Source: a virus. From it: a stretch of DNA of 36,951 bases. Numbering within the stretch: the stretch's first letter is position 1; each line of letters starts with the position of its first letter. This document shows, piece by piece, positions 5,956-29,970 of the stretch. Below the pieces are notes generated by a model, which saw only the letters and a program-made list of their open reading frames with translations, did not search any database and had not been told where the DNA came from. The stretch is taken from the IMG/VR virus record IMGVR_UViG_3300042090_002661, positions 1 to 36,951 of that record; one strand, written 5' to 3'. Position numbers and translations under genes: made by a program.

Positions 5956-5979
5956 TCGGTTATTGTGGAGGTTCAAACC

Positions 5980-7071
5980 ATGCAATATACCGAAACACAG
6001 CTTACAAAGCTTATCGAAGACGTGGAAAAAGAATTCACGGCTCACTTGGCGAAAGCCGAGGAAGCGGCGTTAGCTCCTCTAGCGAAGGCAGAAGAAGGCG
6101 AGAAAAAGCCCGAAGAGAAGCCTGAAGAGAAGGAAGCGAAGCCCGAGCATGAGGCTAAACCGGAATCAGAGATGAAGCCGGAAGCCGAGGCAAAGCCCGA
6201 ACACGAAGCGAAGCCCGAGCATGAAGAGAAGCCGGAAGCGGCTCCTGCTCATGACTACGATGATGAAGATCTTGAGCATCTGCATAAGATGTACATGTCC
6301 ATGTCTGAGGGTGAGCGGAAAGTTCATCATGACGCGATCATGAAATGTGCCATGGCTAAAAGTGGTGATGTGGAAAGCGGAGCTGCTGAAGCGCCTCACG
6401 GTGCAGAAGGCAAGCAAGCGCCCGATAGTCACTCGCATCCGGACGTTCAAAAGTCTGAGCTAAATGCTCACGGCGAAAAAGAAAGTCCTCCCCAACCGAA
6501 AGTGAAGGGAAAGAATATGGATAGCGATAAAGCCAACGGCGGAATCGAAGGACAAGAGCCTAAAAATGCCCTTGGCCCCAAATCTCCTGCCAGCGACGCT
6601 AACGGAGCGAAGATTAACAAATCTGAGCACGATAGACGTAATGGCGGAAAGATCGAAGGTCAGATGCCTAATAACTCGCCTGGTGCAAAATCACCAGCTA
6701 GTAAAGAACAAGGATCAGCAAGTATGGAAAAGTCAGAACAAGGCACAGAAACAGAATTGCTTAAATCAGAACTTGGCGCAGTCAATGCTAAGTATGAGGA
6801 TCTCAAGAAAAATTTTGATGCAGTGGCAGCCTTCTTGACCAAGTTGGTCGAGAAGAAAGCGGCTCCGGCGCAAAAGGCCATCACTTCTCTAGAAGTCATC
6901 GCGAAGAGCGAAGGTTTCGACGAAGGTGAACCTCTTAAAAAGGAAGAGATTCATTCTAAACTGCTCGCTAAATCGCAAGATCCAAGCACGAGCAAGTCTG
7001 ATAGGGACGCGATTAACGCTTTCTATCTGGGCAATGAAGATATTAAAAGGATTAGCCACCTGCTCAAGTAG
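5980..7071 (+). CDS. acidic scaffold/core-like protein with Lys-Pro-Glu repeats
   Basis: 363 residues from the ATG at 5980, chosen because GGAGG at 5967-5971 lies 8 nt before it and overlaps an in-frame GTG at 5965. An N-terminal helix is followed by a (K-P-E-x-E-A) repeat region (residues about 40-90), an E-D-L-E-H-L-H-K-M-Y segment, two copies of a unit of about 37 residues containing IEGQ-x-P-x-N and KSPAS, and a predicted coiled coil (LLKSELGAVNAKYEDLKKNF). Such hydrophilic, helical proteins just upstream of the capsid gene are typically scaffolds or head-core proteins removed by the prohead protease. Five K-S-E tripeptides occur, a motif shared with several other virion-region proteins here. 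Identity as scaffold rests on position and composition. Confidence 0.65.
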   Translation: MQYTETQLTKLIEDVEKEFTAHLAKAEEAALAPLAKAEEGEKKPEEKPEEKEAKPEHEAKPESEMKPEAEAKPEHEAKPEHEEKPEAAPAHDYDDEDLEHLHKMYMSMSEGERKVHHDAIMKCAMAKSGDVESGAAEAPHGAEGKQAPDSHSHPDVQKSELNAHGEKESPPQPKVKGKNMDSDKANGGIEGQEPKNALGPKSPASDANGAKINKSEHDRRNGGKIEGQMPNNSPGAKSPASKEQGSASMEKSEQGTETELLKSELGAVNAKYEDLKKNFDAVAAFLTKLVEKKAAPAQKAITSLEVIAKSEGFDEGEPLKKEEIHSKLLAKSQDPSTSKSDRDAINAFYLGNEDIKRISHLLK

Positions 7072-7100: not shown

Positions 7101-8522
7101 ATGATTGAACAACTTCAGTCACTTATGAAAGCGCTTGAAGCAGGCAGTTATAATGCTGCTCCAGGACAATTGGCACAGGGCGCCTCGCTGATGGTAGAAG
7201 ATCTATCGCCGGTGATGCACAATGTGACTTTTGATGATAGCCATATTAAGCTGCAAAAGATGCTTCCTTCGAAAGATGTGAAGAGTCAGCTGCATCAATT
7301 CAACCGACAACTCGATTACGGTATCTTCGGTGGTTCCGCTCAGTTTGAAGGTGGAATCGGTGAAGAAGACACCTCTAATTATGTCCGTGCGGTGGTTCCG
7401 ATGGCGTACTACAGTACGACCCGTCGAGTTACCGTCGCTGCGAACATGATCGGCGCGTTTGACGGCGTTAAAGCCGAAGACCGAGCCGCAGCGGATGCCG
7501 CGATGAAGCTCGCTGGCGATATCGAGTTTGACTCCTTCCGGGGACAAGCCGATTTCTCCAACATGGGCGTATTCGATGGTAACCCCCTCGCTGTCGCGAA
7601 GCTCCCTAACATGATTGGATTGGACCAACAGGTTCGTCAATCTGATGGGCAGTTAAACACTCAAGATTTAATGTTCGCTGAGTTCGGATCTAACCAAACC
7701 GTAGTTCTCTCGGTTGGTGGAACCCTCACGCAGAGCGTCATCGAAGATTCTTCGGTCCGTTCGGCGATGAACATGGGCGCCGCAGATCGTTTGGTCCTTG
7801 ACCCGATCAGCTTAAGTGCTTATAACAAAATCGCGTATGCCAAAGAGCGAATTATGCTCGCCGGCAGTGCGCAAGAAGCGACTGGTGCTCACCTACGAAC
7901 GCAGTGGACGTCCAGTGCGGTGGTTTCTCTCGAAGCCTCTCGCTTCCTCTCTGGAAAGACCGCTCCCGCGCGTCCTCGTTCCGGATCGCCGGCTGCGCCG
8001 TCGATTGCGGTTTCGGACCTCGGTGCTGCTGGTTCGTTGCTCCAGACTGGTTCGTACGCTTACTACGTTACCTCGGCGTCTATTCGCGGTGAATCGTATC
8101 CTTCGCTTTCTGCTTCTCAAGCAGTTACGGCGGGAGATAAGGTTCAGATCGTGATTACGGCGAACTCTGGTGGCGGATCGAGCGCTCAGTACTTCAACGT
8201 TTATCGTTCAGACCTGAACGGAACGGCTTCGGTTGCGAAGTTCATCGGTAAAGTTGCGGTTAACGCAGCCGGAACTGGTGCTACCTTTATCGACCTCGGA
8301 AACCGTCAACCTGGGTCTGTTACTGGATATCTCGTGCAAGCCAATACGATGGGCTTCGCTCAGTTGGCTCCGTACTCGAAGTTGAAACTTGCTGTGTCTG
8401 ATCTCAGTCTTCCCGAAGCGCACTTTCGCTTCCTGAGTCTCGCGGCTTATCAACCTCGAAAAAATGTTTTACTCGAAAACATCACCGGTCAATTAGCCCC
8501 GAATAATCCTTCGATTTACTAA
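7101..8522 (+). CDS. major capsid protein with inserted Ig/FN3-like domain
   Basis: 473 residues. Residues 1-285 and 405-473 read as an HK97-fold capsid protein of the phage type with MVEDLSPVMHNVTFDDSHIK near the start, a long central helix region (AAADAAMKLAGDIEFDSF) and a C-terminal beta part. Residues about 285-405 form an inserted Ig/FN3-like beta-sandwich: SYAYYVTSASIRGESYPS, AQYFNVYRSDLNG, GATFIDLGNRQPG. Inserted domains of this kind usually project from the capsid surface. A good AAGGAG ribosome site precedes the ATG. There is no obvious N-terminal delta domain, consistent with a separate scaffold gene upstream. Downstream is a large structured RNA/terminator. Confidence 0.8.
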   Translation: MIEQLQSLMKALEAGSYNAAPGQLAQGASLMVEDLSPVMHNVTFDDSHIKLQKMLPSKDVKSQLHQFNRQLDYGIFGGSAQFEGGIGEEDTSNYVRAVVPMAYYSTTRRVTVAANMIGAFDGVKAEDRAAADAAMKLAGDIEFDSFRGQADFSNMGVFDGNPLAVAKLPNMIGLDQQVRQSDGQLNTQDLMFAEFGSNQTVVLSVGGTLTQSVIEDSSVRSAMNMGAADRLVLDPISLSAYNKIAYAKERIMLAGSAQEATGAHLRTQWTSSAVVSLEASRFLSGKTAPARPRSGSPAAPSIAVSDLGAAGSLLQTGSYAYYVTSASIRGESYPSLSASQAVTAGDKVQIVITANSGGGSSAQYFNVYRSDLNGTASVAKFIGKVAVNAAGTGATFIDLGNRQPGSVTGYLVQANTMGFAQLAPYSKLKLAVSDLSLPEAHFRFLSLAAYQPRKNVLLENITGQLAPNNPSIY

Positions 8523-14212: not shown

Positions 14213-15103
14213 ATGGACGGCAACGGCGGAAACGGAAATAATCGCAACTTTGCTTGGAACAACAATAATGTATCCAACTCAATTTTTCCTGGAAAAAGCT
14301 ACGGTACAGCCATGTACCCTGTGCATGCCCTCACCACTTCTGGACTATTTACCAGGGTAGAGCCCCTTCTCACTCCAGAGCAATTTAAGAGTCGCTTTTT
14401 GAAAGGCATTCCGTTGTTTTTGACCAACGGGGCAACGTACTCGGATGACGACTTGAAGGATCGTATTTATCTTGCTGCTAACGCTGTAGAGTTGGATATC
14501 AAGACTACCCTGACTAGAGAGCAGAGACAAGAGAAGCTTCCGTTCAAACAAGAAGACTACAAAGCGTATATCCATTTGACAGCCGAACAAGGTCCGATTG
14601 TCAGCTTGGAAGAACTCGCAATTGTCAGTGCAGATAAGAATAACATTTTTCAAATTCCTCCCGAGTGGATCGAGACCGCAAATTTCTCAAAAAGGATTAT
14701 CAATGTGATTCCTTTGTTAGCAGCATACGGAGTCAACACCGTACAAGGAGCAGTCGGCAATGCTGGCATAGCCTTTTTGACCGTAATTGATGGACTTAAT
14801 TGGGTTCCTGCGTATTGGTCCGTGAAATATACTAGCGGCATTTCCAATGTAGAAGGTAAAATCCCGACAGTTGTCAATGAATTAGTCGGAGTTGTAGCAG
14901 CCATTGACATCATAAGTGAAATAGCTCAATCATTCATATTAACTAGCCAAGCTCAAAGTCAAGATGGAATTTCGCAAAGCAGTTCGATGCCCGGACCACG
15001 CTTATTTGCCTTACGTATCGAGGAGTTAGAGAAAAAAAGAGCTAGATTAGAGGCTCAAATACGTAATATCTTTAGCTCACGATTTATTCTTGGAAATTTT
15101 TAA
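14213..15103 (+). CDS. putative head-tail connector/adaptor protein
   Basis: 296 residues. After a Gly/Asn-rich N-terminus (GNGGNGNNRNFAWNNNN) there is a helical segment with DDDLKDRIYLAANAVELDI and then EEL ... FQIPPEWIE and WVPAYWSVKYTSGI ... KIPTVVNELVGVVAA. The order of an early helix, a proline-containing strand, a W-x-V-x-Y-T-x-G hairpin and a closing helix is like gp6/HK97-type adaptor proteins that join portal and tail. The C-terminus is a short coiled coil (ALRIEELEKKRARLEAQIRN). The first gene base follows the previous stop directly. A homing endonuclease gene is inserted just after its stop, its promoter lying inside this gene's last codons. The call is by pattern and context. Confidence 0.5.
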   Translation: MDGNGGNGNNRNFAWNNNNVSNSIFPGKSYGTAMYPVHALTTSGLFTRVEPLLTPEQFKSRFLKGIPLFLTNGATYSDDDLKDRIYLAANAVELDIKTTLTREQRQEKLPFKQEDYKAYIHLTAEQGPIVSLEELAIVSADKNNIFQIPPEWIETANFSKRIINVIPLLAAYGVNTVQGAVGNAGIAFLTVIDGLNWVPAYWSVKYTSGISNVEGKIPTVVNELVGVVAAIDIISEIAQSFILTSQAQSQDGISQSSSMPGPRLFALRIEELEKKRARLEAQIRNIFSSRFILGNF

Positions 15104-15123: not shown

Positions 15124-16128
15124 ATGAGAAAGTATACTATAGAAGAATTAAAATTAAAATCTAGAGAATATGAGTACAGGGCGGATTTTCTAAAATACGC
15201 AGGCGGCTATTATATGAGCGCCCAAAGACAGGGCATTCTGGATGAAGTCTGCGCTCATATGCCAAAGAATTTATTAATCGGCAGAAAACCTCATAATGCC
15301 AAATGGAATTTTGAATCATTAACGATAGAATGCGCTAAATATGCGAACAGATATCAATTGAGAAAAAATAATCCTTCTGCTTTTAATGCCGCAAAGAGAT
15401 TAAAACTTTTGAACACTTTTTATCCCAAGAAAGACGAATTTAGAAATACACCATATTCAGACGAAGAAATTGCAAAAGAAATAGGCACATACAAAAATAA
15501 AAATGAATTGAAAACAAAAAATCCCTATCTATATCGAATGTTATTGAAACATCCCAATAAATCTCTACTTCTTTCCACACTTCCAGCGGATACTAGAAAG
15601 GGCAAAATTCCCCATAATAAAAAGTGGACGGAGATAACAGTGCCCGCAGAAGCTGCTAAGTACTCCACTAGGATAAGTTTTTTAACACAAGCCCCGGGTG
15701 CCTATGACGCCGCCCTAGATTTAAAAATAATGGACACCTCCTGTGCCCATATGAAAAGGGCGATCAACACATCGAGCCACGAAGAAACACTGTTCAATTT
15801 GATCAAAAAGCAATTCCCTAAGGCTCAAAAATTGAGGGTTAGGAAAAAGAATTTGGTTCCTAATAAGCCGTATATCAATGGTTTTGATTTAGATACTTAC
15901 ATTCCTGAATTGCGCAAGGGTATCGAATTCGATGGTCGTTATTGGCATAGTCCGGAAGGTTTAAAACGATCTAGGGAACATTGGCCTGAAGAAGATATTC
16001 AAAATTATCATCAAATTAAAGATGAATATTTTAAATCTAAAGGTATCGAAATTTTACATATTAGAGAAGAAGATTGGCTCTTAGATCCTGAAAAATGCAT
16101 TTCTCAATGTTTGAAATTTTTAAAGTAA
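15124..16128 (+). CDS. free-standing homing endonuclease with CAHM repeat modules
   Basis: 334 residues. Residues 1-215 are about four modules of 45-55 residues with the pattern of a basic helix, N-P-x-A-Y/F-x-A-A, then a C-A-H-M-like end (DEVCAHMPKN and DTSCAHMKRA; the middle copies have lost the Cys). Similar modules precede the nuclease at 30609-32054, so they are probably DNA-binding units. Residues about 220-334 are a Vsr-like nuclease core: GFDLDTYIPELRKGIEFDG, RYWHS, and GIEILHIREEDWL. It lacks the GNAT-like C-terminal domain seen in three related proteins here. It has its own promoter with no leader, and is AT-rich. It separates the connector-like gene from the 2H phosphoesterase gene. 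Confidence 0.85.
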   Translation: MRKYTIEELKLKSREYEYRADFLKYAGGYYMSAQRQGILDEVCAHMPKNLLIGRKPHNAKWNFESLTIECAKYANRYQLRKNNPSAFNAAKRLKLLNTFYPKKDEFRNTPYSDEEIAKEIGTYKNKNELKTKNPYLYRMLLKHPNKSLLLSTLPADTRKGKIPHNKKWTEITVPAEAAKYSTRISFLTQAPGAYDAALDLKIMDTSCAHMKRAINTSSHEETLFNLIKKQFPKAQKLRVRKKNLVPNKPYINGFDLDTYIPELRKGIEFDGRYWHSPEGLKRSREHWPEEDIQNYHQIKDEYFKSKGIEILHIREEDWLLDPEKCISQCLKFLK

Positions 16129-16131: not shown

Positions 16132-16860
16132 ATGATAGGCGAAGGGGTTCACAACAAATATAAAGAAACTGCTAAAAATGGTGGAGACATTTTGTGGCAC
16201 GTCACTATCAGAGGCAGAAAGGAATTGATGCCTGGAATTCCTTTGCACATGTCCTTAAAAGTGTTCGAAGATAAAAAAGAAATGGACATAGAAGAATTGA
16301 AGCGAAAAGTAAAAGAATTCGACATAAAGACACCCAATCCAAAAGAGTTGAAATTTAGGACGACTATTTTCACCTCTGAAAGGGACGGTCTAAAATATTA
16401 CATGCTCCTAATTGATGGGTCTGACAAGTCATACGGTGAATTCTATGAAAGCTTGAAACACTGCGGTACGGTTTATAAAAAGTTCATGCCACACATCACG
16501 ATTGATAAAGATTTATACGATAGCATCAACAGGGACGGGCTCAAGCCGGAAGAAATAAAATTTGACGATTTGACGATTGAAGCTGGGGCCGGAAATACGG
16601 TTCATGAATTTGAAAAGAGCGAGGACTTTGTTCAGATCTTAAAAGAAGTGGCTTTCTACACGAGCCTAAGAGATTCTTTGGTGATTTCTTTGCCCGATGA
16701 CGCTTTCAGCAATTGGATACAAGACAACCCAAATGCTAGAAAAGAGATAATGGCAAAGCACGAAGAAAGAGTCAGATTTCATTTTGGCGATCAAGAAATC
16801 GCCCAATATGCCTTGGAAAACGGTATTGCAAAGGCATACGAATTGTTGAGGAAAAAATAA
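16132..16860 (+). CDS. 2H phosphoesterase-family protein
   Basis: 242 residues. Two H-x-S/T motifs at family-like spacing, PLHMSLKVF (H39, S41) and FMPHITI (H121, T123), are separated by a strand-helix-strand pattern (FRTTIFTSERDGLKYYMLLI), as in the LigT/2H superfamily. These enzymes hydrolyse 2',3'-cyclic phosphates or cyclic (oligo)nucleotides; phage Acb1 is a 2H enzyme that defeats CBASS. A C-terminal helical part (residues 170-242) is unexplained. The ATG comes 3 nt after the endonuclease stop, with a weak ribosome site. It overlaps the next gene by one base (TAATG) and belongs to the operon containing the cyclase-like gene at 21009. Substrate unknown; tRNA-repair-type activity is the main alternative. 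Confidence 0.65.
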   Translation: MIGEGVHNKYKETAKNGGDILWHVTIRGRKELMPGIPLHMSLKVFEDKKEMDIEELKRKVKEFDIKTPNPKELKFRTTIFTSERDGLKYYMLLIDGSDKSYGEFYESLKHCGTVYKKFMPHITIDKDLYDSINRDGLKPEEIKFDDLTIEAGAGNTVHEFEKSEDFVQILKEVAFYTSLRDSLVISLPDDAFSNWIQDNPNARKEIMAKHEERVRFHFGDQEIAQYALENGIAKAYELLRKK

Positions 16861-17363
16861 TGCAGTTAAAACCTAGCGACATAGAAAGAGTAGAAGAGAT
16901 AGGTTCACTGGACGGAAATAAAGTTTCTCTCTTGCGAACTAAGGGGGGCTTCTGGATAGCCCTCGGAAAGAAAAGAAATAAGAACATCGAGGAAGCATTG
17001 GCTGCTGGTTCGCACCCAGCGATCGTGAAGTATAATCTAGAAAAACAATTTTCTGGCTTCCAACCCGCGATGAATAAATCAGAACACGGAATCGAGCCCA
17101 TCGTGAGCAAACACTCTCATTATCTTGGCGAAGACCAAAGAAAGAGCGGGCACGATATATTCTCGATTCAAACTGGAAACGTGATAGAATTTCAAATTAC
17201 AAAACAGAATTCTGCTTTGGCAACAGTTAACGGCAACATCGACAGTGATAACTTATCTATCAATGATTTGAATATCCCAAAAGAATTTACTAAAGCGATG
17301 GCCGGAGCTACCTTGGAAAAAGCAATTGCGTGCGAAGTAGGACTTAAGTTGTTAAGAAAATAA
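16860..17363 (+). CDS. hypothetical protein
   Basis: 167 residues, TAATG overlap with the preceding gene. The N-terminal half alternates strands and helices (VSLLRTKGGFWIALGKKRNK), followed by AMNKSEHGIEPIVSKHSHYL with clustered His residues, then a beta-prone region and a C-terminal helix. It carries the K-S-E tripeptide common in this gene cluster. No family or catalytic signature is recognised. Tight coupling to genes on both sides implies joint expression with the 2H phosphoesterase and the virion proteins. Confidence 0.65.
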   Translation: MQLKPSDIERVEEIGSLDGNKVSLLRTKGGFWIALGKKRNKNIEEALAAGSHPAIVKYNLEKQFSGFQPAMNKSEHGIEPIVSKHSHYLGEDQRKSGHDIFSIQTGNVIEFQITKQNSALATVNGNIDSDNLSINDLNIPKEFTKAMAGATLEKAIACEVGLKLLRK

Positions 17364-17364
17364 G

Positions 17365-17715
17365 ATGTGTATCCAAATTTACAATTGCGATTCCAGTTCA
17401 AAGTACGATTCTTCCAAACCTCTAGAAGAGCAGCTTAGAAATTCTCAAAAAGTCGTGATCAATTACGATCCGAAGGACCCCGATATGGAAGTCTTTTTGA
17501 GCGAGATGGAAAAGCTGGCTAAAACTGGCGTTAGTTGCAATGTGAGCCTGGATGTCTCCCATAATAATTATATTACTGGAGCAAAGGCAAAAAGGCAAAT
17601 AGAAAGATTAAAAAAAGATTTAGACTTGAACGAGGCGATTAAGATTTTGGTAAATATTCATTCGGAGCTAGACAAAAGATTGGAGAGCATTTCCGTATTT
17701 TGTCGTGAAAGATAA
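17365..17715 (+). CDS. hypothetical protein
   Basis: 116 residues. Starts 1 nt after the previous stop and overlaps the next gene by one base (TAATG). The fold pattern is alpha/beta with a charged C-terminal helical part (AKRQIERLKKDLDLNEAIKI, LVNIHSELDKRLESI) that could form a coiled coil or helical hairpin. No motif identifies a function. Its place between two overlapping genes argues that it is real. Confidence 0.6.
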   Translation: MCIQIYNCDSSSKYDSSKPLEEQLRNSQKVVINYDPKDPDMEVFLSEMEKLAKTGVSCNVSLDVSHNNYITGAKAKRQIERLKKDLDLNEAIKILVNIHSELDKRLESISVFCRER

Positions 17716-18671
17716 TGTCGGCTAGACCCCCTGTTGGATTGCAGATACCCACGATCGTGCCTTTGGCACCGATAGTTCAGGAAAGCTTTGATCTAAACAG
17801 ACTCGATATTTTTGTTACCAGCCTTGGTATCGATGTCATGCATTATCGTGCCATCCCGAGCCCCATAGGACAGAACGATCGAGGCTCTTGGCGCCGAAAT
17901 GATGGGGTTGATACCATTTCCTCGAACGGGATGATCTATAGGTATGCTGGCACTTTTACTGCGACCCTAACGAGCAATGACAGAGATCAAAAACGAGGCC
18001 CATCTGGCGTGATAGACCCTTCTGAAGCGCATCTTGTTATGCCTAGATTCTACAACGCCAACGGCACCGTGGATACCGGGAATCGCATTTATCTGGCACC
18101 TGGCGATAGGATTTACATTGCAGACCCCAATGCAGACGTTAATGTGGCAAATCCTCAAAAGATGGATTATGAGGAAGGCATCGATAATGTACCGATGTTT
18201 CCTATCGTTCAATTATTAGATACCATCGTGGATAGCAGAAATATTCGGTATAATCCGAATGTTGACTACACTATCACTACGGATGGCAACATCAGATGGC
18301 TACCCGGTGGAAATAACCCAGGGATCGATCCCGATACGGGGAAAGGTCGAGTATATTCAATAGTTTATCTTTACAGAGCCTTCTATTATGTAGTTGCACT
18401 GCCCCATGAGCTTCGAATCACCAATGTTACCATCGGCGGTGTCAGGGCGCCGGCCAGAATGCCGATGGAAGCCGTTATCATGAGAGAATATATTTTTCAT
18501 AATCAAAATAAAGGCAGTAAAACTAATCAAAATGTGCCTCCAGTTCCGCAAAGAGTGGACGCTGCGCCTAGAGAGTCTACCGATCCAAATAAATATATTG
18601 TCCACGTAGATATGGGAAATGTCGAAACATTTCCAAACCATGATATAAAGAACAATGGAGACCAATCTTAA
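17715..18671 (+). CDS. putative neck/virion structural protein
   Basis: 318 residues, mixed beta content, Pro/Asn/Gly rich: IFVTSLGIDVMHYRAIPSP, TVDTGNRIYLAPGDRIYIAD, GRVYSIVYLYRAFYYVVALP. There are no transmembrane segments or enzyme motifs. The segment before the end (VPPVPQRVDAAPRESTDPNK) looks like a disordered tail. Position after the connector-like gene and before the tail-completion-type gene suggests a head-to-tail joining or neck role. No family recognised with certainty. Confidence 0.6.
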   Translation: MSARPPVGLQIPTIVPLAPIVQESFDLNRLDIFVTSLGIDVMHYRAIPSPIGQNDRGSWRRNDGVDTISSNGMIYRYAGTFTATLTSNDRDQKRGPSGVIDPSEAHLVMPRFYNANGTVDTGNRIYLAPGDRIYIADPNADVNVANPQKMDYEEGIDNVPMFPIVQLLDTIVDSRNIRYNPNVDYTITTDGNIRWLPGGNNPGIDPDTGKGRVYSIVYLYRAFYYVVALPHELRITNVTIGGVRAPARMPMEAVIMREYIFHNQNKGSKTNQNVPPVPQRVDAAPRESTDPNKYIVHVDMGNVETFPNHDIKNNGDQS

Positions 18672-18698
18672 GTATAATGAATTTAAGGAGTAATTAAG

Positions 18699-19166
18699 AT
18701 GCCAACAAACGTAAGAATAGTACCGGGAAGCAATACTTTAGACCCAGGTGCGATTGTCAATAACCAGTACAATGATGCAGCCGGTTCACAAAAAGTAAGC
18801 GAAGTAGGTAGACATAATTTGCCATTTCCATACATCAGTGGCGGCTCTGTAGCTTATACCACTAATTTGACCACACCTCTTCCTTTGCCAAAAAAAGGTA
18901 TGGGACTTGCAGTGTACAACAATGACACTGCCGTTCATGCCATCACTCTCGGCGAAAGTGCAACATCTCCAGCTTCCGCTCTTGGACCCGGAGTTACAGA
19001 TGTGAATGGTCATGTCGGAGTACCGTGCGCCCCTGCATCTTGGACATACATCTCCACCGGCACCAAAAATTGGGTATTTTCAAATAGCGCGCTTCTTTTG
19101 GTATTTTTGGTCTCTGATAATTCAGAAATTGGAAACCAAATGCCAGCGCAAACCCCTGGCTACTAA
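18699..19166 (+). CDS. hypothetical virion protein
   Basis: 155 residues, nearly all beta-prone and uncharged (KKGMGLAVYNNDTAVHAITL, PCAPASWTYISTGTKNWVFS, ALLLVFLVSDNSEI), resembling a compact beta-sandwich such as a decoration or fibre-associated protein. AAGGAG lies at good distance before the ATG. The following gene is a homing endonuclease, starting 9 nt after its stop. No family recognised. Confidence 0.6.
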   Translation: MPTNVRIVPGSNTLDPGAIVNNQYNDAAGSQKVSEVGRHNLPFPYISGGSVAYTTNLTTPLPLPKKGMGLAVYNNDTAVHAITLGESATSPASALGPGVTDVNGHVGVPCAPASWTYISTGTKNWVFSNSALLLVFLVSDNSEIGNQMPAQTPGY

Positions 19167-19175
19167 GAGTAATTG

Positions 19176-19976
19176 ATGAAGCCGCGTCTATCTAAATCTG
19201 AAATAGATAAACGATTATACGATATCCATAAAGGAGTTGTATTTTCAGATCATTCTACTTTTAAAAGCGTTAATGTTAAAAGTAGACTTGTAGATGTAGT
19301 TCATGGAGAATTCTGGTGTAAATTAAACGATGTATTCAGCAAAAAGGTTGGGCACCCGCAAAGACAATTAGAAAAAACGAAGCAAACGTGGGCAAAAAAA
19401 TACGGCGTCGAAAATATATCTCAAAGTCCTTCTATCAAAAGAAAAAAAATAAGCACTTGTATTAAAAATTTTGGATATGAATTTTCAACTCAATCACCAG
19501 AAGTACAATTAAAAATAAAAGCAAATAATTATCAAAAGTATGGTTTTGAAAGTCCCAACCAAAGCCCGGTGGTAAAAGAGAAAAAGAAGAAAGTTTATTT
19601 AGAAAAATATGGAGTTGCGGCCCCTTCTCAAAACAAAGAAATAGCCTTAAAACAAGCTAAATCTGTCAATTATAGTTTCATAAAATATCACTGGAAAACC
19701 AATGAAGAGCTGGTTTGTCAAGGTTCTTATGAAGTTAAAACAGTCAATTATCTTAATGAAAATCAAATAGAATTTGAATGGCAGCCGCGAGTTTTCAAGA
19801 TGCCAAACGGCAAGACTTATCGTCCAGATCTCTATTTGGTCGATGAAAACAAGTGGATAGAGATAAAAGGTTACATGAGAAAAGACGCCCAAGAAAAATG
19901 GGATTGGTTTAAGACCCAGTTCCCAGGCGCCGAACTTTGGAATAAAGAAAAATTAAAGCATATGGGGATATTATAA
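19176..19976 (+). CDS. homing endonuclease, PD-(D/E)XK type with repeated KYG modules
   Basis: 266 residues from the ATG at 19176 (a TTG lies one codon upstream). Residues about 60-160 contain three or four repeats of the pattern K-x-T/W-x-K-K-Y-G-V-x-N-x-S-Q-S-P-x-I-K (KKYGVENISQSPSIKRKK, QKYGFESPNQSPVVKEKK, EKYGVAAPSQNKEIALKQ), DNA-binding units frequent in phage homing endonucleases. The C-terminal part has a PD-(D/E)XK core: TYRPDLYLVDENKWIEIKGY (D and E-x-K). Unlike other endonucleases here it has no promoter of its own in front and is embedded in the operon, overlapping the next gene by TAATG. Confidence 0.85.
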   Translation: MKPRLSKSEIDKRLYDIHKGVVFSDHSTFKSVNVKSRLVDVVHGEFWCKLNDVFSKKVGHPQRQLEKTKQTWAKKYGVENISQSPSIKRKKISTCIKNFGYEFSTQSPEVQLKIKANNYQKYGFESPNQSPVVKEKKKKVYLEKYGVAAPSQNKEIALKQAKSVNYSFIKYHWKTNEELVCQGSYEVKTVNYLNENQIEFEWQPRVFKMPNGKTYRPDLYLVDENKWIEIKGYMRKDAQEKWDWFKTQFPGAELWNKEKLKHMGIL

Positions 19977-21007
19977 TGTCTTCTAATGCTAATTATTTTC
20001 TAAAGAAAACTTTAGGCGAAGATTTTCTTGATTCTTTGAATAAAAGCGAGCTGTGGAAACCAGGAACTAAGTCAGTCAACAATGTTGATGATATGTGGCA
20101 CGGATTAAAGTTAGTTCCTCGCACCGTAATTGCTTTTTTGGTGAGAGAACTTTCTGGCATGCAAGTTGGAGAAAATAAAAGAGTTGAATTGCCGATGGCC
20201 CCGAATTCTTTTATGATGATTACCAAGCTAGAGAGGGATCAGTTTTCTGGAGATGTAGAGCAAGATAATAAAAAAGTAACTGAATTTAAATTCCGGTCTC
20301 TTCCCGGCGTTGGTCTCGTTATCATGTCTTGCTTTGAGTTGTATCAAGAATATCTTTCAGAAGACGCTCCTGCACAAAATATTTCTACATCGATTTCAGC
20401 ATCTATTCCCGAGCCCGTATCTATTGATGCCGATAGTAGAATTCAACGGTTGATAGATGAGCGTCTAATGCTTCATGATTTAATTGGTCAGGTTGTAGAT
20501 AAAAAGATAATGCACAAAGAAGCCATTCATCAGATGGTGCTTGCCAAACTTACGGATGCAGTAAAATTACTAGATGAGAAGATGGATAGCATCCATAGCA
20601 AAACTGCGGATATTGGTTTTGTGCACGCTGTAGCAAATGATTTAGAAAGAAAAATCTCAGGAATAGCAGAAAAAGCTGCTATGGCCGAAGTAAAAGCAGA
20701 AGTTGCTAAAAGTATCGCCTCTAAGGCGGCTAAAAAACCGAGGCCGCTGCAGACGTTCTTAGAAAAGAAAAAACAAAAAGTTTTCAACATTCCACTCCAT
20801 TTGACCAAAAGTGAGTCGGTCTCATGTCCTGACTGCGGTAAAGAAATTTTTAATTACACCGGGTTCAATGGCTGCATATGCTATGGCTCAGACATGTATA
20901 AAAAAGTAGTCTTGAAGAAGACCGAGCAGGGAATCAAAATTTCGTTTCCAAAATCTTGGGACGAAGAAAATATTACCATGTTATTAGAGGTTTTAAGAAA
21001 ACGGTAA
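19976..21007 (+). CDS. hypothetical protein with C-terminal zinc ribbon
   Basis: 343 residues. The first 130 residues are globular (WHGLKLVPRTVIAFLVRELS, NSFMMITKLERDQFSGDV). Residues about 150-250 are a long helical region with coiled-coil character (RIQRLIDERLMLHDLIGQVV, DAVKLLDEKMDSIHSKTADI), rich in Ala and Lys towards its end. Residues about 280-300 hold a C-P-D-C plus C-I-C pair (SVSCPDCGKEIFNYTGFNGC) that could bind zinc. It ends 1 nt before the cyclase-like gene, so the two are surely cotranslated; both have Cys-pair regions. Contains two K-S-E tripeptides. Function unknown; a virion core protein is possible. Confidence 0.6.
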   Translation: MSSNANYFLKKTLGEDFLDSLNKSELWKPGTKSVNNVDDMWHGLKLVPRTVIAFLVRELSGMQVGENKRVELPMAPNSFMMITKLERDQFSGDVEQDNKKVTEFKFRSLPGVGLVIMSCFELYQEYLSEDAPAQNISTSISASIPEPVSIDADSRIQRLIDERLMLHDLIGQVVDKKIMHKEAIHQMVLAKLTDAVKLLDEKMDSIHSKTADIGFVHAVANDLERKISGIAEKAAMAEVKAEVAKSIASKAAKKPRPLQTFLEKKKQKVFNIPLHLTKSESVSCPDCGKEIFNYTGFNGCICYGSDMYKKVVLKKTEQGIKISFPKSWDEENITMLLEVLRKR

Positions 21008-21008
21008 C

Positions 21009-22949
21009 ATGGATATTCCTAGTGGATTCAAATTTATCTCGTATGACGGAGATTCCGTTGGCAGACGCATCGGCAGAGCTACCATGGCTGATGATCTGGA
21101 TGAGTTGCGACACATCTCTGAGTTAATAAAAGCTGGACACGAGTTAGTCAGGCGTTGGGTGAAAGATAACAATGGTGTCTGGATTAATGGTGGAGGCGAT
21201 GAAGGGGTAGCGGCCATTCCTGGCGACTGTATTGAGAAGTTAGAACAGCTGAGAAAGGATTATGAATACCTAGTTGGGCATACTATTTCTGTGGGCGTTG
21301 GCGATAAACCCTCAGAATCTGGACGCGCGCTTCTTATGGCAAAATTAGCTGGAAAAAATAGAATCGTAAAATTTAGTCGGGCTATTGAGAAAGAAGTTGT
21401 AAAAATTAAGAAACGCGCCAAAAAGGGAGCTTTTAAATCGATGGAAGAGCACAAACTTGCCGAAGCATATTTAAAGAAAGCAGAAAATGACGATCCAAAC
21501 TCCATTGCTAATCAAAAGCCCGAAGCGACTCATGAGAATTGCGAGTGGTGTAATCAAACCGATGGCGTTGATTTAGACCATTGTACTTACTGTCACGATC
21601 AAGAGCGTGAAGAAAAATGCCCATATTGCAGCTATGATAGGCCGGTCGATGAAAAACTAGATTTTCCAGAATTAGCAGAGCAGGATTGCCAATATTGTAA
21701 AGAGAAAGACGCCGAAGAACAAAATGAGTGTAAATACTGCAATGACCCAGGCAAAAATGACATAGACGGTTCTACGCTTCCAGGACAGAGGATAGGTACA
21801 TCTCCTGATTCCACCAACGAAGCGGCCCCCGCAGGTTCCGCCGATGAAAAAGAATTGTATTCCAGAATGGATATGGCTCCCCCCGAGATTGGAAAACCAT
21901 TGCCTCCCGACAAACGGGTGCCCATTGGCCAAAATGCCCCTATGGATGTGGTTCCTAAAACTCCAGAGCAGGAAGATTCCAGATCTACTGAGAAAGATGC
22001 TGACATGGGCGAGCCTCCGGCCATTGATCCAGAAGATAATCATTCCAAAGAAGCTATGCAAGCCATAGCCAAGGAGATCGAGACCGACGGCAACCCTACG
22101 GACAAAGAAGTAAATGCGGTAGATGATGCGGCTATGCCTACGAGTAAAGAAGCAGAAGGCAATATCAGTCGTCCAAGTGGATTTGCACAGAATACTCCGG
22201 GAGATATGGGGGAAGACGGTACCAACCCTCCTACTTCGGATGAACCTGCTGGTGAAGAAGATCCGGATTATTATGGAGTGTTGGAAGCAGGCTTAGATGA
22301 GCATGCGAACGGTATTAAGAAAGAGAAATCCATTCAGATGGTTTCTCAAGCCTTAATGCAATTCAAGGCTGCCAAACAAACGTTAGAAAATATTCGAGAG
22401 CAAGCCCCCGATTTATATTCCGCTTCTATATCAATGCTAAAGGCCATGATTGAGATGGCTGGAATGTTAGGTCTTAATAGTGCCGCGTCCGCTCAGCCAC
22501 AACAGGAGCTGGGAGCAGAACAAGCAGAATTGGTGCCCAATCAACCTGAATCGAACGAGAAGCCGCCTGAAGAACAAAATGATGAATGGCATGATCCATT
22601 TCCTACCCATCCCGATCAAGGTGGCGAGGCTAAGCCTACACATTCTCCTTCCAAGAATAATCCCGCTCCCCACAGAGACATGGGAAGTGCACTTAAAGAT
22701 AGTCCCAAATCAGTTGGTGGCAGTATTGGTCAGCCAGCTGGTAAACTTTCCTCTCAACACACCACGGAACATGTAGCTAGAATTCCTACTCCTCCCGGCG
22801 CGATAAATAGTAAAGGGCAACAGAAGGTGATAGATCCCAAAACCGGCAAAACTCGTTGGATAGATCGCAAAGCTGGAATGGTACAAAGCGCCACTGGAGT
22901 ACCGATAAAATCTCCCAATAGGAATCCTCAAAGTGGATCTCAAAATTAA
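21009..22949 (+). CDS. mCpol/GGDEF-like nucleotide cyclase palm domain fused to CxxC array and disordered virion-type tail
   Basis: 646 residues. Residues 7-123 read as a polymerase-palm cyclase: a first strand with acidic residues FKFISYDGDSVGRRIG (D13, D15), the second catalytic hairpin WINGGGDEGVAAI (G62-G63-D64-E65), TISVGVG (92-98), and the closing helix AKLAGKNRIV (111-120). This is the order and spacing of minimal CRISPR polymerase (mCpol) and GGDEF enzymes, which make cyclic (oligo)nucleotides. Residues 178-244 contain five CxxC pairs (CEWC, CTYC, CPYC, CQYC, CKYC). Residues 250-646 are Pro/Glu/Asp/Asn rich with one helical segment (KSIQMVSQALMQFKAAKQTL) and a basic C-terminus (DPKTGKTRWIDRKAG). 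It sits between virion genes; the next gene starts with GTG inside it. Activity is inferred; a palm fold retained for structure is the alternative. Confidence 0.7.
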   Translation: MDIPSGFKFISYDGDSVGRRIGRATMADDLDELRHISELIKAGHELVRRWVKDNNGVWINGGGDEGVAAIPGDCIEKLEQLRKDYEYLVGHTISVGVGDKPSESGRALLMAKLAGKNRIVKFSRAIEKEVVKIKKRAKKGAFKSMEEHKLAEAYLKKAENDDPNSIANQKPEATHENCEWCNQTDGVDLDHCTYCHDQEREEKCPYCSYDRPVDEKLDFPELAEQDCQYCKEKDAEEQNECKYCNDPGKNDIDGSTLPGQRIGTSPDSTNEAAPAGSADEKELYSRMDMAPPEIGKPLPPDKRVPIGQNAPMDVVPKTPEQEDSRSTEKDADMGEPPAIDPEDNHSKEAMQAIAKEIETDGNPTDKEVNAVDDAAMPTSKEAEGNISRPSGFAQNTPGDMGEDGTNPPTSDEPAGEEDPDYYGVLEAGLDEHANGIKKEKSIQMVSQALMQFKAAKQTLENIREQAPDLYSASISMLKAMIEMAGMLGLNSAASAQPQQELGAEQAELVPNQPESNEKPPEEQNDEWHDPFPTHPDQGGEAKPTHSPSKNNPAPHRDMGSALKDSPKSVGGSIGQPAGKLSSQHTTEHVARIPTPPGAINSKGQQKVIDPKTGKTRWIDRKAGMVQSATGVPIKSPNRNPQSGSQN

Positions 22950-23679
22950 CATAGACGCGGCGGCGTTAGCTAAGGAAATCTCAGAATTTGCCAAGCAAGT
23001 AGAAGCTGACATCAAGAGAGGTGTCGCCAATCTCGCCACTATTACGCATGCCAAGGTAAAAGAGATGGCGGCTACCGAACTCAAATCCTCTAGAGAGGCT
23101 TTCATGAATAGCCTTAGTTTCGAAGAGCTCGCCGATGGTATTTGGATAGTTAGCGTTGACGAAAAAGCTTTATGGGTCGAAGAAGGCATTCCGCCCAATA
23201 CTGATATGAAACCCGCTTTGCTGAAGAATGCGGAAACATCCAAAAGCGGTGGTAAGTATAAAATCATACCTTTTGAGCACAGCAAGGCTCCTTCTCAGAT
23301 GACTCAGTCTGCGAAGAACATCGTGTCTCAGTTAAAAACCGAATTAAAAAAAGCGAATGTTCCGTTTAAAACCATCGAAAGAAACTCTGATGGTTCTCCA
23401 AGATTGGGCAAATTGCATTCACTGAATTTGCCAAGCCAAATTCCTGGCAAAGGTAATACACCCGCACTCCATGGCGTGTCTATTTATCAAACTATGAAAG
23501 GAAACGCTGTCAAAAGAGATATCATGACCTTCAGGACCGTAACAGATGGTCCCGGTAGTCAAGGAAAATGGATTCATCCCGGACTCACCGCAAAGAAATT
23601 TTTGGATAGAGCAGCGTCCTGGGCCGAGTCGGAATTTTTTGAAAAGATTTTACCTGAAATTATGGAAAGGTGGAAATAG
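22933..23679 (+). CDS. tail completion/neck protein, HK97 gp10-like
   Basis: 248 residues from a GTG start overlapping the end of the cyclase-like gene by 17 nt. An N-terminal helix (AALAKEISEFAKQVEADIKR) is followed by KVKEMAATELKSSREAFMNS, the strand pair DGIWIVSVDEKALWVEEGI, and near the C-terminus KWIHPGLTAKKFLDRAA. This pattern, a helix, a beta sandwich with an E-x-G turn, and W-I-H-P-G before a final helix, is typical of HK97-gp10-type proteins that finish the tail at the head end. No ribosome site is strong; translational coupling is likely. A GIY-YIG endonuclease gene ends directly against it on the other strand. Confidence 0.65.
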   Translation: MDLKINIDAAALAKEISEFAKQVEADIKRGVANLATITHAKVKEMAATELKSSREAFMNSLSFEELADGIWIVSVDEKALWVEEGIPPNTDMKPALLKNAETSKSGGKYKIIPFEHSKAPSQMTQSAKNIVSQLKTELKKANVPFKTIERNSDGSPRLGKLHSLNLPSQIPGKGNTPALHGVSIYQTMKGNAVKRDIMTFRTVTDGPGSQGKWIHPGLTAKKFLDRAASWAESEFFEKILPEIMERWK

Positions 23680-24498: not shown

Positions 24499-24516
24499 AT
24501 TTTTCTCACTGCTCAT

Positions 24517-27201: not shown

Positions 27202-29970
27202 ATGAGTTTACGTTTAATTACACCTTTTGTAAATACTAATATCCCCGGTGCGTATCCCAATGTTGTCGTTCAGAGTCAACCAGTAGGACTCGCTTCTTCT
27301 GGTATCGTTGTTATCATGGGCGAAGCTGACGGCGGACCTGGATATAACCAAGTTGCGCTTTCTAAACAAGTTTTTACGCCCGATCAACTGGCTCTAGTTC
27401 AGCAAGAATATATCGGTGGACAAATCGTTGATTCGTTCACGGCATTGGCTGCTCCTTCTGATGATCCAAATATCACTGGCTCGGCAAATTTAATTTATAT
27501 CGCCAAAACGAATAACGGAACATCTGCTTCATCTGCACTTCCTGGCAGCTACGGAACACTTTCGGATAGTAACTATGGAGTTGATGGAAATTTATATAAC
27601 TATCAAATTTTATCGGTAGACGCCGGCGTTCCTCCCATGCTTTCTGGAAATACGGTGCCGTCATTTGGCTCTGCTCTAGACGGTGCTAGCTTTTCTCTTC
27701 GCTTGAATGGTGGCGCGGTTGATGTAATCACTTTAAGTAGCGGTTCGTCTTCTCCCGTCAGCCCAGCCGAAGCCGCTGCTGGTCAGTCTGCTGCCTCTGC
27801 AGCGTACACAAGCCTGGGAGCGAGAACCCCCTCTTCAGCAATTTCACCTGTCCTCGATGGCCAGACGTTAACTCCTGGTAATTACAATACTGGAGCGGCC
27901 AGCTTAGCTGCTTCTGGTCCTGGGACTTTAACTTTTAACGGAGCTGGCGTCTATGTAATTAAGACTTCTAGCACCCTAGTCACTGGCGCTGGCGGCATTG
28001 CCACCATCGCGCTGACTGGCGGAGCAACCGCTGCAAACATCTACTGGGTGGTTGGCTCTGCGGCCACGATCAACTCCGGCTTCTCTGGAACATTCCAAGG
28101 TAACGTCATCGCTGAAACTAGCATCACGGTCAGCTTGGGCGGAACCGTCAACGGTAGCTTGATCGCATTGAATGGCGCTGTAACCCTGAGTGCTGCCACG
28201 AATGTTAGTGCTCAATCAGCACCTCTACTGAATTATGCAGGAAGTTTTGCTCTCTTGGGTGCTTCTGGAGTAACCAACACCGGTGCTTCCGTAGCCACTG
28301 GAAACGTTGGTTCTAGTCCAACCAATAGTATTGCTGGATTCCCACCCGGCACCATCGTCGGCGCAGCCCACTCCAACATTGCTGAATTAGTCACAGAGCT
28401 GAATCTATTGCTTCCTTCTGGAATCGTGGCATCTGCTGGTTCTTCGATGAACGTGGTTCTTACGATGACCGCCGAAGGTGATCCGTATGCACAGGGGTCT
28501 AGTCAATCATTCGAACTCATTGATTCTACCCTTGGAGATTTGGCCGCTTTAGGACTTTCCGCTGGATTAGTACTTCCTTCGCAATTGCCTGAAGTAGAGC
28601 TCAACATCGTCAGACCTGACATCAACGTCAATCAGTCAATCGACGTGAGCGCGGCTGTCGCCTTAGAAGTTGGATATCAAGGAACGTCTGGTACTATTTC
28701 GGTAAGCGCAACTACTATTAGCACGACTGTCGTTGGTGGAATCGGTGCGAATCTTTCGATTCCCATCAGCCAGTACACGACTATTGCGGAACTAGCGGCT
28801 TTTATCGCCGCACAGCCCGGTTATTCTGCGGTATGCCCTGCGAATGCTCAGCAATTGCCTCCCAGCGTCTTAGATCGAGTTTCTGATGTAGGCATCGCCT
28901 CTTCCGGTGCGGGATTACTTCCTGGACAAATTTGGGATGCAGCGTACCTGTTTGCGCAAGCGGCGGCAACGTCTGCTCTCGTATTTACGGTTGGCGCAGA
29001 CGGGAAAGTAGGATTACCTGCCCCCATGAGTGCCTCGTTATACTTAGCGGGTGGAACGAGGGGCGCTACCCTGGCAGTAGACATCGTCAACATCTTGAAT
29101 CAGATTGGCGGAATCAACTGCAACATGATCGTTCCTCTCTTCTCCGAAGATGCAAGTTTGGATATCGCAGCTGGATTAACAGATCCAGCCAGCACCTACA
29201 CTATCGAAGCGATCAACGCTCTCGTTAAAAGTCACTGTATCCAATACAGCACGCCTGCTCTTAAGAAAAATCGCATCTGCTTACTTTCTTGGCTTGGTAC
29301 TTATGCTTCTGCTGCGGCTGAAGCTCAGAGTCTCGGAAACTATCGATGCTCTCTCACTATGCAACAGGTCAGCCAAGTTAATTCTCAGGGCGTCATACAA
29401 CTATTTCAACCTTGGTATGCTTCTTCGTTGGCTGCTGGTATGCAAGCTGGTGGATTCTATAAATCGATCTGCAACAAAGCCGCTAACCTCATTAGTTTCA
29501 CAGATCCTAGCGGGTTTGATTCGGGAAGCCCTGGCGACGTCGAAGAGGCGTTATCAGCAGGACTCCTGTTCTTATCGCAAGATACAGGAAGAGCCGGGTA
29601 CTGGGTTTCGGACCAAACTACGTACGGATTCGATACCAACTTCGTATACAACAGTATCCAGGCTGTCTATGACTCGGATTTGATTGCTCTTGATCTGGCT
29701 CAAAGTTTCTTTACCCAGTTCGTTGGGCAGTCCTTGGCGGATGTTTCTGCCTCTGCAGCACTTTCTTTCTTGACCCAGAAGATGGATGGTTACTTGAAGC
29801 TGAAACTCATTGGTTCCAGTAGCGATGCCCCGCTCGGATTCAAGAATGCGAGCATCACGATTGACGCCCCAGAGATGGATGTGAAGGTCGAGATTAAGCT
29901 TGCCACCGCAATATACTTCATTCCGATCAACATTAACATTTCCCAGATCATGGGAACTGCGGGCACCTAA
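27202..29970 (+). CDS. tail sheath protein with inserted, circularly permuted DUF3494 module
   Basis: 922 residues, far longer than a typical sheath. The N-terminus (MSLRLITPFVNTNIPGAYPN) and C-terminal part (KNRICLLSWLGTY, FKSICNKAANL-type insertion domain, KLKLIGSSSDAPLGFKNASI, final TAIYFIPINININ-like strand) fit contractile sheath proteins, and the tail tube gene follows 16 nt downstream. Residues 182-388 interrupt a sheath strand-loop-helix (SFSLRLNGGAVDVITL, then SNIAELVTELNLLLP) with a DUF3494 beta-solenoid: LDGQTLTPGNYNTG, TLTFNGAGVY, ANIYWVVGSAATI, FQGNVIAETS, GSLIALNGAVTLS, then LLGASGVTNTGASV and AGFPPGT. The last two normally come first in DUF3494. The module should sit on the outer surface of the sheath. 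Strong ribosome site (AAAGGAG). Confidence 0.88.
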   Translation: MSLRLITPFVNTNIPGAYPNVVVQSQPVGLASSGIVVIMGEADGGPGYNQVALSKQVFTPDQLALVQQEYIGGQIVDSFTALAAPSDDPNITGSANLIYIAKTNNGTSASSALPGSYGTLSDSNYGVDGNLYNYQILSVDAGVPPMLSGNTVPSFGSALDGASFSLRLNGGAVDVITLSSGSSSPVSPAEAAAGQSAASAAYTSLGARTPSSAISPVLDGQTLTPGNYNTGAASLAASGPGTLTFNGAGVYVIKTSSTLVTGAGGIATIALTGGATAANIYWVVGSAATINSGFSGTFQGNVIAETSITVSLGGTVNGSLIALNGAVTLSAATNVSAQSAPLLNYAGSFALLGASGVTNTGASVATGNVGSSPTNSIAGFPPGTIVGAAHSNIAELVTELNLLLPSGIVASAGSSMNVVLTMTAEGDPYAQGSSQSFELIDSTLGDLAALGLSAGLVLPSQLPEVELNIVRPDINVNQSIDVSAAVALEVGYQGTSGTISVSATTISTTVVGGIGANLSIPISQYTTIAELAAFIAAQPGYSAVCPANAQQLPPSVLDRVSDVGIASSGAGLLPGQIWDAAYLFAQAAATSALVFTVGADGKVGLPAPMSASLYLAGGTRGATLAVDIVNILNQIGGINCNMIVPLFSEDASLDIAAGLTDPASTYTIEAINALVKSHCIQYSTPALKKNRICLLSWLGTYASAAAEAQSLGNYRCSLTMQQVSQVNSQGVIQLFQPWYASSLAAGMQAGGFYKSICNKAANLISFTDPSGFDSGSPGDVEEALSAGLLFLSQDTGRAGYWVSDQTTYGFDTNFVYNSIQAVYDSDLIALDLAQSFFTQFVGQSLADVSASAALSFLTQKMDGYLKLKLIGSSSDAPLGFKNASITIDAPEMDVKVEIKLATAIYFIPININISQIMGTAGT
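27754..28365 (+). repeat. DUF3494-module copy 2 (homologous to 11974-12561)
   Basis: In-frame insertion in the sheath gene with near-identical stretches to the copy in the 11422 gene, including the 32-nt exact match at 27925-27956. Both copies have the same permuted order. Confidence 0.8.

What the first reader, a model, noticed from the sequence alone, without database searches (positions are those of the whole stretch)
16132..22949. 2H phosphoesterase and cyclase-like gene in one phage operon: possible make-and-break nucleotide system
A 2H phosphoesterase (the Acb1 fold, known to degrade CBASS signals) lies about 4 kb upstream of the mCpol-like gene, with almost all genes between them overlapping or nearly so. 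In Panoptes, depletion of the mCpol product releases a toxic effector. A phage that degrades cyclic nucleotides but also supplies an mCpol-like product could evade both CBASS and Panoptes. This pairing is a hypothesis.
Basis: inference. Interest (0 to 1): 0.75.

Follow-up and report, generated by a model that had tools for sequence, protein, structure and literature searches.

The report
Phage head-module nucleotide cutter and cyclase
An uncultured contractile-tailed phage carries, among its head and tail genes, a nucleotide-cutting enzyme and a relative of the bacterial Panoptes alarm-molecule synthase; both look functional and at least the cutter looks like cargo packed inside the head, but relatives gain, lose and swap them separately, so a dedicated make-and-break pair is not shown.

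Summary
ORF 16132-16860 is a 2H phosphoesterase (two HxS/T motifs; predicted fold matches solved 2H enzymes) and ORF 21009-22949 starts with a genuine mCpol palm (PF18182 E 1.5e-13; predicted fold matches Panoptes OptS, Z 18, 1.6 A). They lie 4.1 kb apart in one tightly packed block, between the major capsid gene and the tail sheath gene. All 28 informative relatives found with either gene carry both. A sample drawn with a neighbouring structural gene shows they separate: the palm is ancestral and occurs without 2H, one lineage keeps 2H without the palm, one lost both, and 2H is swapped between lineages without tracking the palm. Relatives show 2H fused to a lytic transglycosylase in a slot that elsewhere holds ART, GNAT or NUDIX domains: a 'polyvalent' protein slot. 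A maturation-protease-like motif, [LMIVF]xK[AS]E, is strongly enriched in scaffold, 2H and other head-module proteins, often at the 2H domain edges, and absent from capsid, neck, sheath and tube proteins. Best reading: two effectors, the 2H and more weakly the palm predicted to be capsid cargo, acting on host nucleotide signalling, with no evidence of a dedicated pair. Polyvalent, head-packaged effectors are known; an mCpol in a phage virion module seems unreported.

The parts
16132..16860 (+). 2H phosphoesterase ORF (242 aa): 2H domain about residues 8-164, then a C-terminal remnant of an SLT transglycosylase domain
   Evidence: both HxS/T motifs; AF2 fold and VIA matches; full-length relatives are 2H-SLT fusions
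16246..16254 (+). 2H motif 1, H39-M-S41
   Evidence: read from the sequence; H39 invariant in 9 aligned relatives; motif present in 29/29 copies
16492..16500 (+). 2H motif 2, H121-I-T123
   Evidence: 82 residues after motif 1
16609..16623 (+). FEKSE (residues 160-164): predicted head-protease site at the end of the 2H domain
   Evidence: motif enrichment and position in relatives
16687..16857 (+). remnant of the SLT domain (about residues 186-242); the stretch holding the catalytic Glu is missing in the window and in L002
   Evidence: alignment; SLT above the Pfam cut-off in three relatives
21009..22949 (+). mCpol-fusion ORF (646 aa): palm, acidic linker with CxxC pairs, conserved helical region and C-terminal tail
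   Evidence: in L100/L149 an ORF with the linker and C-terminal parts remains without the palm
21033..21374 (+). mCpol palm domain (residues 9-122)
   Evidence: PF18182 E 1.5e-13; OptS E 4.6e-16; AF2/VIA Z 18.2
21045..21053 (+). D13-G-D15; D13 aligns with OptS catalytic Asp6
   Evidence: OptS residues from PMC12657218
21192..21203 (+). G62-G63-D64-E65; E65 aligns with OptS catalytic Asp57
   Evidence: ungapped count between the NG and GV landmarks
21471..21485 (+). LKKAE (residues 155-159): predicted head-protease site after the palm
   Evidence: a site at this junction (148-155) is present in 7 of 37 copies including the window
15124..16128 (+). homing-endonuclease-like ORF just upstream of the 2H gene
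   Evidence: weak PF18741 match; no relative at this place in most loci
19173..19976 (+). homing-endonuclease-like ORF inserted between the two genes
   Evidence: phrog_3339 E 1.6e-12, DUF7487; absent from L002
16860..17363 (+). module protein with one conserved predicted protease site (37 of 38 relatives)
17365..17715 (+). small module protein of unknown function
17715..18671 (+). virion structural protein (phrog_1004)
   Evidence: E 2.1e-5
18699..19166 (+). module protein of unknown function
   Evidence: collinear in relatives
19976..21007 (+). module protein with predicted protease sites (28 of 39 relatives)
22933..23679 (+). module protein overlapping the end of the mCpol ORF (phrog_16819)
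   Evidence: E 6.6e-14; overlap 17 b
1405..2865 (-). candidate head maturation protease
   Evidence: phrog_1028 head maturation protease E 7.5e-6
5965..7071 (+). scaffold-position ORF with 7 predicted protease sites (0.23 expected)
   Evidence: position directly before the capsid gene
7101..8522 (+). major capsid protein
   Evidence: phrog_752 E 5.7e-43
14213..15103 (+). neck/tail-module gene used for the unbiased sample
   Evidence: phrog_772 E 5.3e-14
27202..29970 (+). tail sheath
   Evidence: phrog_279 E 1.9e-24; Mx1 match to its annotated tail sheath

Best explanation
These are two separate effector enzymes carried on proteins of a phage virion module, in a lineage distantly related to Myxococcus phage Mx1. 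Shown by sequence and predicted structure: a 2H phosphoesterase and an mCpol cyclase palm, each with its key residues; a slot in which 2H, ART, GNAT and NUDIX domains alternate next to a conserved transglycosylase; independent gain, loss and swapping of 2H and palm. Inferred: the head maturation protease cuts at [LMIVF]xK[AS]E, freeing the 2H domain (and in this phage the palm) inside the capsid; they enter the host with the DNA; 2H then hydrolyses host 3'-5' or 2'-5' linked (cyclic) oligonucleotide signals, while the palm makes a cyclic dinucleotide that disturbs host signalling. They act in parallel; an obligate make-and-break cycle is not implied.
For: Enzymes. Structural module: capsid, sheath and virion PHROG hits and collinearity across relatives. 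Slot logic: 2H-SLT fusions, GNAT-ART-NUDIX-SLT protein of 1479 aa in the same slot of Mx1, NUDIX/GNAT-SLT in others. Carrier logic: in L100, L104 and L149 the palm is missing, and in L100 and L149 an ORF with the C-terminal part of the fusion remains in its place. Protease motif: 13 against 0.85 expected in seven window proteins, none of 1000 shuffles reaching it, variant motifs near background; 136 against 4.6 in scaffolds, 54 against 3.0 in 2H proteins, 0 in major capsid, neck, sheath and tube families; in Mx1, 16 against 1.5 in the head/neck region and 5 against 5.1 in the rest of the genome. 2H sites often lie at the domain edges. Precedent for 2H in injected polyvalent proteins, and the suggestion that GGDEF cyclases there interfere with host signals: PMC5512222. 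Synonymous sites are saturated while proteins stay 85% (2H) and 77% (palm) identical between the window and L002.
Against: No virion proteomics or enzyme assay is known to me for these phages. The motif was noticed in these same sequences before it was tested; Mx1 and the 2H-less slot proteins (15 against 2.3) are only partly independent checks. It is weak in mCpol proteins overall (15 against 4.5; junction site in only 7 of 37). The head protease assignment is a weak match (E 7.5e-6). The metal-ligand position of the palm is Gln in 10 of 31 copies, and the palm is degenerate in Mx1 (29). 2H enzymes also process RNA ends, so a signalling substrate is not proven.
Confidence: 0.55

Rival explanations
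1. One reading: a coupled make-and-break system. 2H destroys CBASS-type signals and the phage mCpol replaces the Panoptes signal, so the phage escapes both defences.
For: Both genes in 28/28 informative relatives found through either gene; in the neck-gene sample 24 of 25 2H-bearing contigs have an intact palm, against 8 of 19 without 2H (Fisher p 9e-5, not corrected for shared ancestry); one clade lost both (L100, L104, L149); OptS makes 2',3'-c-di-AMP and Acb1/Acb2 can trigger Panoptes (PMC12657230, PMC12657218).
Against: The tree needs only 3 changes for 2H and 4 for the palm, so the association rests on very few events; palm without 2H and 2H without palm both occur; 2H is swapped without tracking the palm; the 2H may destroy the product of the palm; no CBASS or Panoptes link was seen.
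Confidence: 0.13
2. 2H is an RNA enzyme (2',3'-cyclic end processing, 2'-5' or RNase activity) used in takeover or RNA repair, unrelated to signalling; mCpol acts on its own.
For: Nearest structures are VP3 2',5'-phosphodiesterase, LigT and cyclic-phosphate enzymes rather than Acb1; Iyer et al. give an RNase role as an equal option for 2H in polyvalent proteins.
Against: No RNA ligase gene was noticed beside it; the slot alternates with ART, GNAT and NUDIX effectors, which fits host manipulation more than RNA repair; 2H enzymes that cut cGAMP are also among the matches.
Confidence: 0.22
3. The palm is a nucleotide-binding or purely structural part of a virion protein and no longer a cyclase.
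For: Degenerate in Mx1, L086, L124 and L132, first Asp replaced by Asn in L087, L098, L130 and L139; Gln in place of Glu65 in 10 of 31; the C-terminal part survives without it.
Against: D13, D15, S37 and GGD64 are invariant in 14 aligned copies from the window clade (105); the window has the full GGDE; domain loss argues against an essential structural role.
Confidence: 0.1

Closest known systems
Polyvalent proteins of phages and conjugative elements (Iyer et al. 2017, PMC5512222)
   Same: Multi-domain proteins encoded beside virion genes, mixing ART, GNAT, NUDIX, 2H and peptidoglycan-cleaving domains, inferred to be injected with the DNA; 2H and GGDEF domains are discussed there as acting on nucleotide signals.
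   Different: mCpol does not occur in that paper's text; here the palm sits on its own carrier protein, and a candidate head-protease motif lies between domains.
Panoptes OptS / mCpol (PF18182)
   Same: Fold (Z 18.2, 1.6 A over 118 residues), first catalytic Asp, conserved Ser at the base-selecting position S30.
   Different: Phage-encoded, fused to a 500-residue C-terminal part, in a virion module; no OptE effector beside it; Glu or Gln in place of Asp57.
Acb1 anti-CBASS nuclease
   Same: 2H superfamily fold and paired HxT/S motifs.
   Different: Structural match weaker than to VP3 or LigT (Z 6.7 against 9.2 and 8.6); no detectable sequence relation; often fused to a transglycosylase in relatives and predicted to be capsid cargo.
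T4 and SPN3US head maturation with packaged ejection proteins
   Same: Head protease cutting after Glu in a short motif, propeptides that target proteins into the prohead (PMC10052503).
   Different: Motif here is [LMIVF]xK[AS]E, predicted only; no proteomics.

Membership tests
2H phosphoesterase superfamily | two HxT/S motifs about 80 residues apart | tested here: met
   29/29 copies, 82-83 residues apart
2H phosphoesterase superfamily | 2H fold | tested here: met
   AF2 model; VIA Z 9.2-8.0 to rotavirus VP3, LigT and cyclic-phosphate enzymes; Foldseek best hit a 2H cGAMP PDE, E 9.6e-4 (72)
Acb1 (anti-CBASS) | detectable sequence kinship to Acb1 | tested here: not met
   tblastn in 50,697 phage records: no match at E<=1; PDB profile search lists no 2H enzyme
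Acb1 (anti-CBASS) | cleavage of cyclic di- and trinucleotides containing adenosine | not testable with these tools
   needs an enzyme assay
mCpol (PF18182) | profile match above the curated cut-off | tested here: met
   51.5 bits against 26.4
mCpol (PF18182) | fold of OptS | tested here: met
   Z 18.2, 1.6 A, 118 residues; next GGDEF 14.1, Cas10 13.2
mCpol (PF18182) | catalytic acids Asp6 and Asp57 of OptS | tested here: inconclusive
   Asp6 = D13 present; position 57 is E65, as in GGDEF enzymes
mCpol (PF18182) | synthesis of a cyclic dinucleotide | not testable with these tools
   needs an enzyme assay
Panoptes defence system | S-2TMbeta effector gene next to the synthase | tested here: not met
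   neighbours are virion-module proteins; no Pfam effector match; one weak PADLOC 2TM hit to ORF 17365, E 0.0067, a 116-aa protein
Polyvalent proteins | several unrelated enzymatic domains in one polypeptide near virion genes | tested here: met
   in relatives and Mx1; the window copy keeps 2H plus a broken SLT tail
Polyvalent proteins | injected into the host with the DNA | not testable with these tools
   indirect support only: protease motif

The most novel reading that the evidence does not exclude
The virion delivers, at the moment of infection, both a phosphodiesterase that clears CBASS-type signals and an mCpol whose differently linked, 2H-resistant product keeps Panoptes-type guards silent: a prefabricated decoy supply carried in the capsid.
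Probability: 0.1. Interest if true: 0.92.

Novelty: new variant of a known kind. Interest (0 to 1): 0.6.

Why it matters
mCpol is known as a bacterial defence synthase (Panoptes); searches of the two founding papers found no mention of a phage mCpol. Finding it conserved in the virion module of an uncultured phage lineage, next to an exchangeable slot for effectors such as 2H, suggests that phages may carry signal-making as well as signal-breaking enzymes into the cell. The predicted cleavage motif gives a cheap proteomic test in a cultured phage (Mx1) of whether polyvalent proteins are cut into single enzymes inside the capsid, which Iyer et al. raised for other peptidases.

Tried and rejected
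Specific pairing from co-occurrence: rejected as a test, since the whole module is collinear. Association of 2H with an intact palm: Fisher p 9e-5, but only 3 and 4 changes on the tree, so not taken as coupling. dN/dS between window and L002: synonymous sites saturated for most genes, no ratio used. Genome contigs for mCpol relatives of this type: none confirmed. Phage records: Mx1 is the only relative found. Relatives of the Mx1 palm in viral contigs by single sequence: none. PDB profile search with the 2H alignment: no informative match. PADLOC 2TM hit to ORF 17365 taken as chance: E 0.0067, five proteins scanned, no membrane segment apparent. Papers on phage-encoded cyclases or anti-Panoptes: none found. 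A domain resembling DUF3293, seen by eye in four slot proteins, got no Pfam match and is not claimed.
Full report
Observation. The window is a 36,951-base virus record, probably a fragment. The seven gaps between successive ORFs from the 2H to the mCpol gene are -1, 1, -1, 27, 6, -1 and 1 bases. One ORF between them, 19173-19976, is homing-endonuclease-like and absent from the closest relative L002. The surroundings are a virion module: major head protein (phrog_752, E 5.7e-43), tail sheath (phrog_279, E 1.9e-24), further virion proteins.

The 2H enzyme. Pfam and PHROGs give no match for the window protein, but both HxS/T motifs are present at the expected spacing, in all 29 copies examined. 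The AF2 model built with nine sequences matches solved 2H enzymes: VIA Z 9.2 to the rotavirus VP3 2',5'-phosphodiesterase, 8.6 to LigT, 7.6 to a Burkholderia phage phosphodiesterase, 6.8 to the penguinpox cGAMP phosphodiesterase and 6.7 to Acb1 (Foldseek's only hit under E 0.001 is the penguinpox enzyme). So it is a 2H enzyme, and calling it Acb1 goes too far. In many relatives the 2H domain is followed by an SLT lytic transglycosylase domain, above the Pfam cut-off in three. The window and L002 have lost the part that holds the catalytic Glu and keep the C-terminal tail.

The mCpol. Residues 9-122 match PF18182 and the OptS crystal sequences; the AF2 model (pLDDT 95) gives Z 18.2 and 1.6 A to OptS, against 14.1 for the best GGDEF and 13.2 for Cas10. 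Asp6 and Asp57 are the catalytic acids of OptS (PMC12657218). D13 corresponds to Asp6; E65 of GGDE corresponds to Asp57, an acid of the kind GGDEF enzymes use there (general knowledge of that family). In 31 viral copies the first Asp and GGD are always present, while the fourth residue is Glu in 21, the window included, and Gln in 10. The remaining 500 residues are an acidic linker with CxxC pairs, a conserved helical region and a conserved tail; a similar tail is seen in Mx1.

Co-occurrence. Searching viral contigs with the palm gave 18 contigs; all 15 that reach far enough upstream hold the 2H gene, and the three that do not are 8.6-12 kb fragments. Searching with the 2H gave 13 more contigs, all with the palm. 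That is 28 of 28. But the whole module is collinear in all of them, so this cannot single out the pair.

An unbiased sample. The neck-module gene (14213-15103), aligned with its Mx1 relative, recovered 71 loci. Among 44 rows with both states known (43 viral contigs and Mx1), 24 have 2H and an intact palm, 1 has 2H without palm (L146; L155 is a near-copy), 8 have an intact palm without 2H, and 11 have neither an intact palm nor 2H. 'Intact' is my reading of the first Asp and the GDE/SDE motif (GGDQ was counted as intact). The tree needs three changes for 2H and four for the palm state. The palm spans the deepest split, down to Mx1, where it is degenerate; 2H is confined to the window's side. 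Some contigs are fragments, so absences are less certain than presences.

2H is swapped. Across 25 phages, 2H pairwise identity follows the other genes with Spearman 0.23, while the eight others score 0.49-0.84 (palm 0.64). The window 2H is 73-74% identical to those of L008 and L009, whose backbones are only 49-50% identical to it. The partial correlation of 2H with the palm, given the backbone, is 0.12. This argues against tight co-evolution.

The slot. Between the neck gene and ORF 16860, relatives carry 2H-SLT, sometimes with further domains; L008 has an extra region (phrog_2563). Mx1 has a 1479-aa protein with GNAT, ART-PolyVal and NUDIX Pfam domains and an SLT-like region; L086 has GNAT and NUDIX with SLT; L097 and L111 have GNAT with SLT. 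This is the pattern of polyvalent proteins (PMC5512222), where 2H domains were proposed as RNases or as breakers of immune nucleotides, and GGDEF cyclases as interfering with host signals.

The carrier of the palm. In L100, L104 and L149 the palm is gone; in L100 and L149 the ORF in its place keeps the CxxC, helical and tail parts. So the palm is a removable N-terminal domain.

A predicted head-protease motif. [LMIVF]xK[AS]E occurs 7 times in the scaffold-position ORF (0.23 expected). In seven window proteins it occurs 13 times against 0.85 expected, reached by none of 1000 shuffles, while changed versions of the motif stay near background. Over relatives: scaffold 136 against 4.6, 2H proteins 54 against 3.0, ORF 16860 40 against 2.1, ORF 19976 42 against 4.2, mCpol 15 against 4.5, and none in major capsid, neck, sheath or tube. 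In 2H proteins sites often sit just before the domain and at its end. In the complete Mx1 genome the head/neck region has 16 against 1.5 expected and the rest 5 against 5.1. ORF 1405-2865 (-) is a weak match to a head maturation protease family (E 7.5e-6), and Mx1 has an annotated prohead protease. Work on SPN3US and T4 shows that such proteases cut after Glu in short motifs and that propeptides target proteins into the prohead (PMC10052503). The motif was noticed before it was tested, and relatives are not independent; Mx1 is the best control. The prediction is strong for the 2H proteins and weak for mCpol in general, though the window mCpol has a site right after the palm.

Mechanism. Most likely both enzymes are effectors carried by virion-module proteins, the 2H freed and packaged in the head, entering with the DNA and acting on host nucleotide signalling in parallel. 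Substrate, product, packaging and injection are inferred. Acb1 does not cut the 2'-5' linkage of 3'2'-cGAMP (PMC9117128), so linkage-based sparing is conceivable; but Acb1 degrades 2'3'-c-di-AMP in vitro (PMC12657230), which is the product of OptS.

Novelty. Polyvalent and head-packaged effectors are known kinds. A phage mCpol in a virion module was not found in the papers searched. New variant of a known kind.

Noticed in passing
OR576727.2 (Mx1) 17173-17904; L086 about 307: Mx1 carries an annotated 'nucleotide cyclase' with an intact GGDEF motif between the prohead protease and capsid genes, although its mCpol palm is degenerate; a similar GGDEF protein is in L086. A second cyclase in a head module of this lineage.
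   Followed up: partly
window 11422-12993: ORF with an ice-binding-like domain (PF11999, E 7.9e-30) and chitobiase C-terminal/Fn3-associated domains, among the virion genes.
   Followed up: no
window 3629-5269, 8715-10256, 15124-16128, 19173-19976, 23680-24516, 30609-32054, 33455-34135: Many homing-endonuclease-like ORFs inserted through the structural module (family matches only for some).
   Followed up: partly
palm of L003, L031-L035, L037, L058, L062, L063: GGDQ in place of GGDE: the metal-ligand position is Gln in one group of copies, all other key residues kept.
   Followed up: partly
L146 about 16528-17900: In L146 the palm is replaced by a different basic N-terminal region on the same kind of C-terminal part.
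   Followed up: no
L164 (locus of G047, same contig as L124): The palm reading frame of this contig holds one in-frame TAG: broken gene, sequencing error or recoding.
   Followed up: no
window 3-602: Start of the contig encodes a low-complexity repeat of NCE units.
   Followed up: no
L005, L006, L009, L022, L029 and Mx1 slot proteins: An alanine-rich hydrophobic stretch resembling a signal peptide lies just before the SLT domain (read).
   Followed up: no
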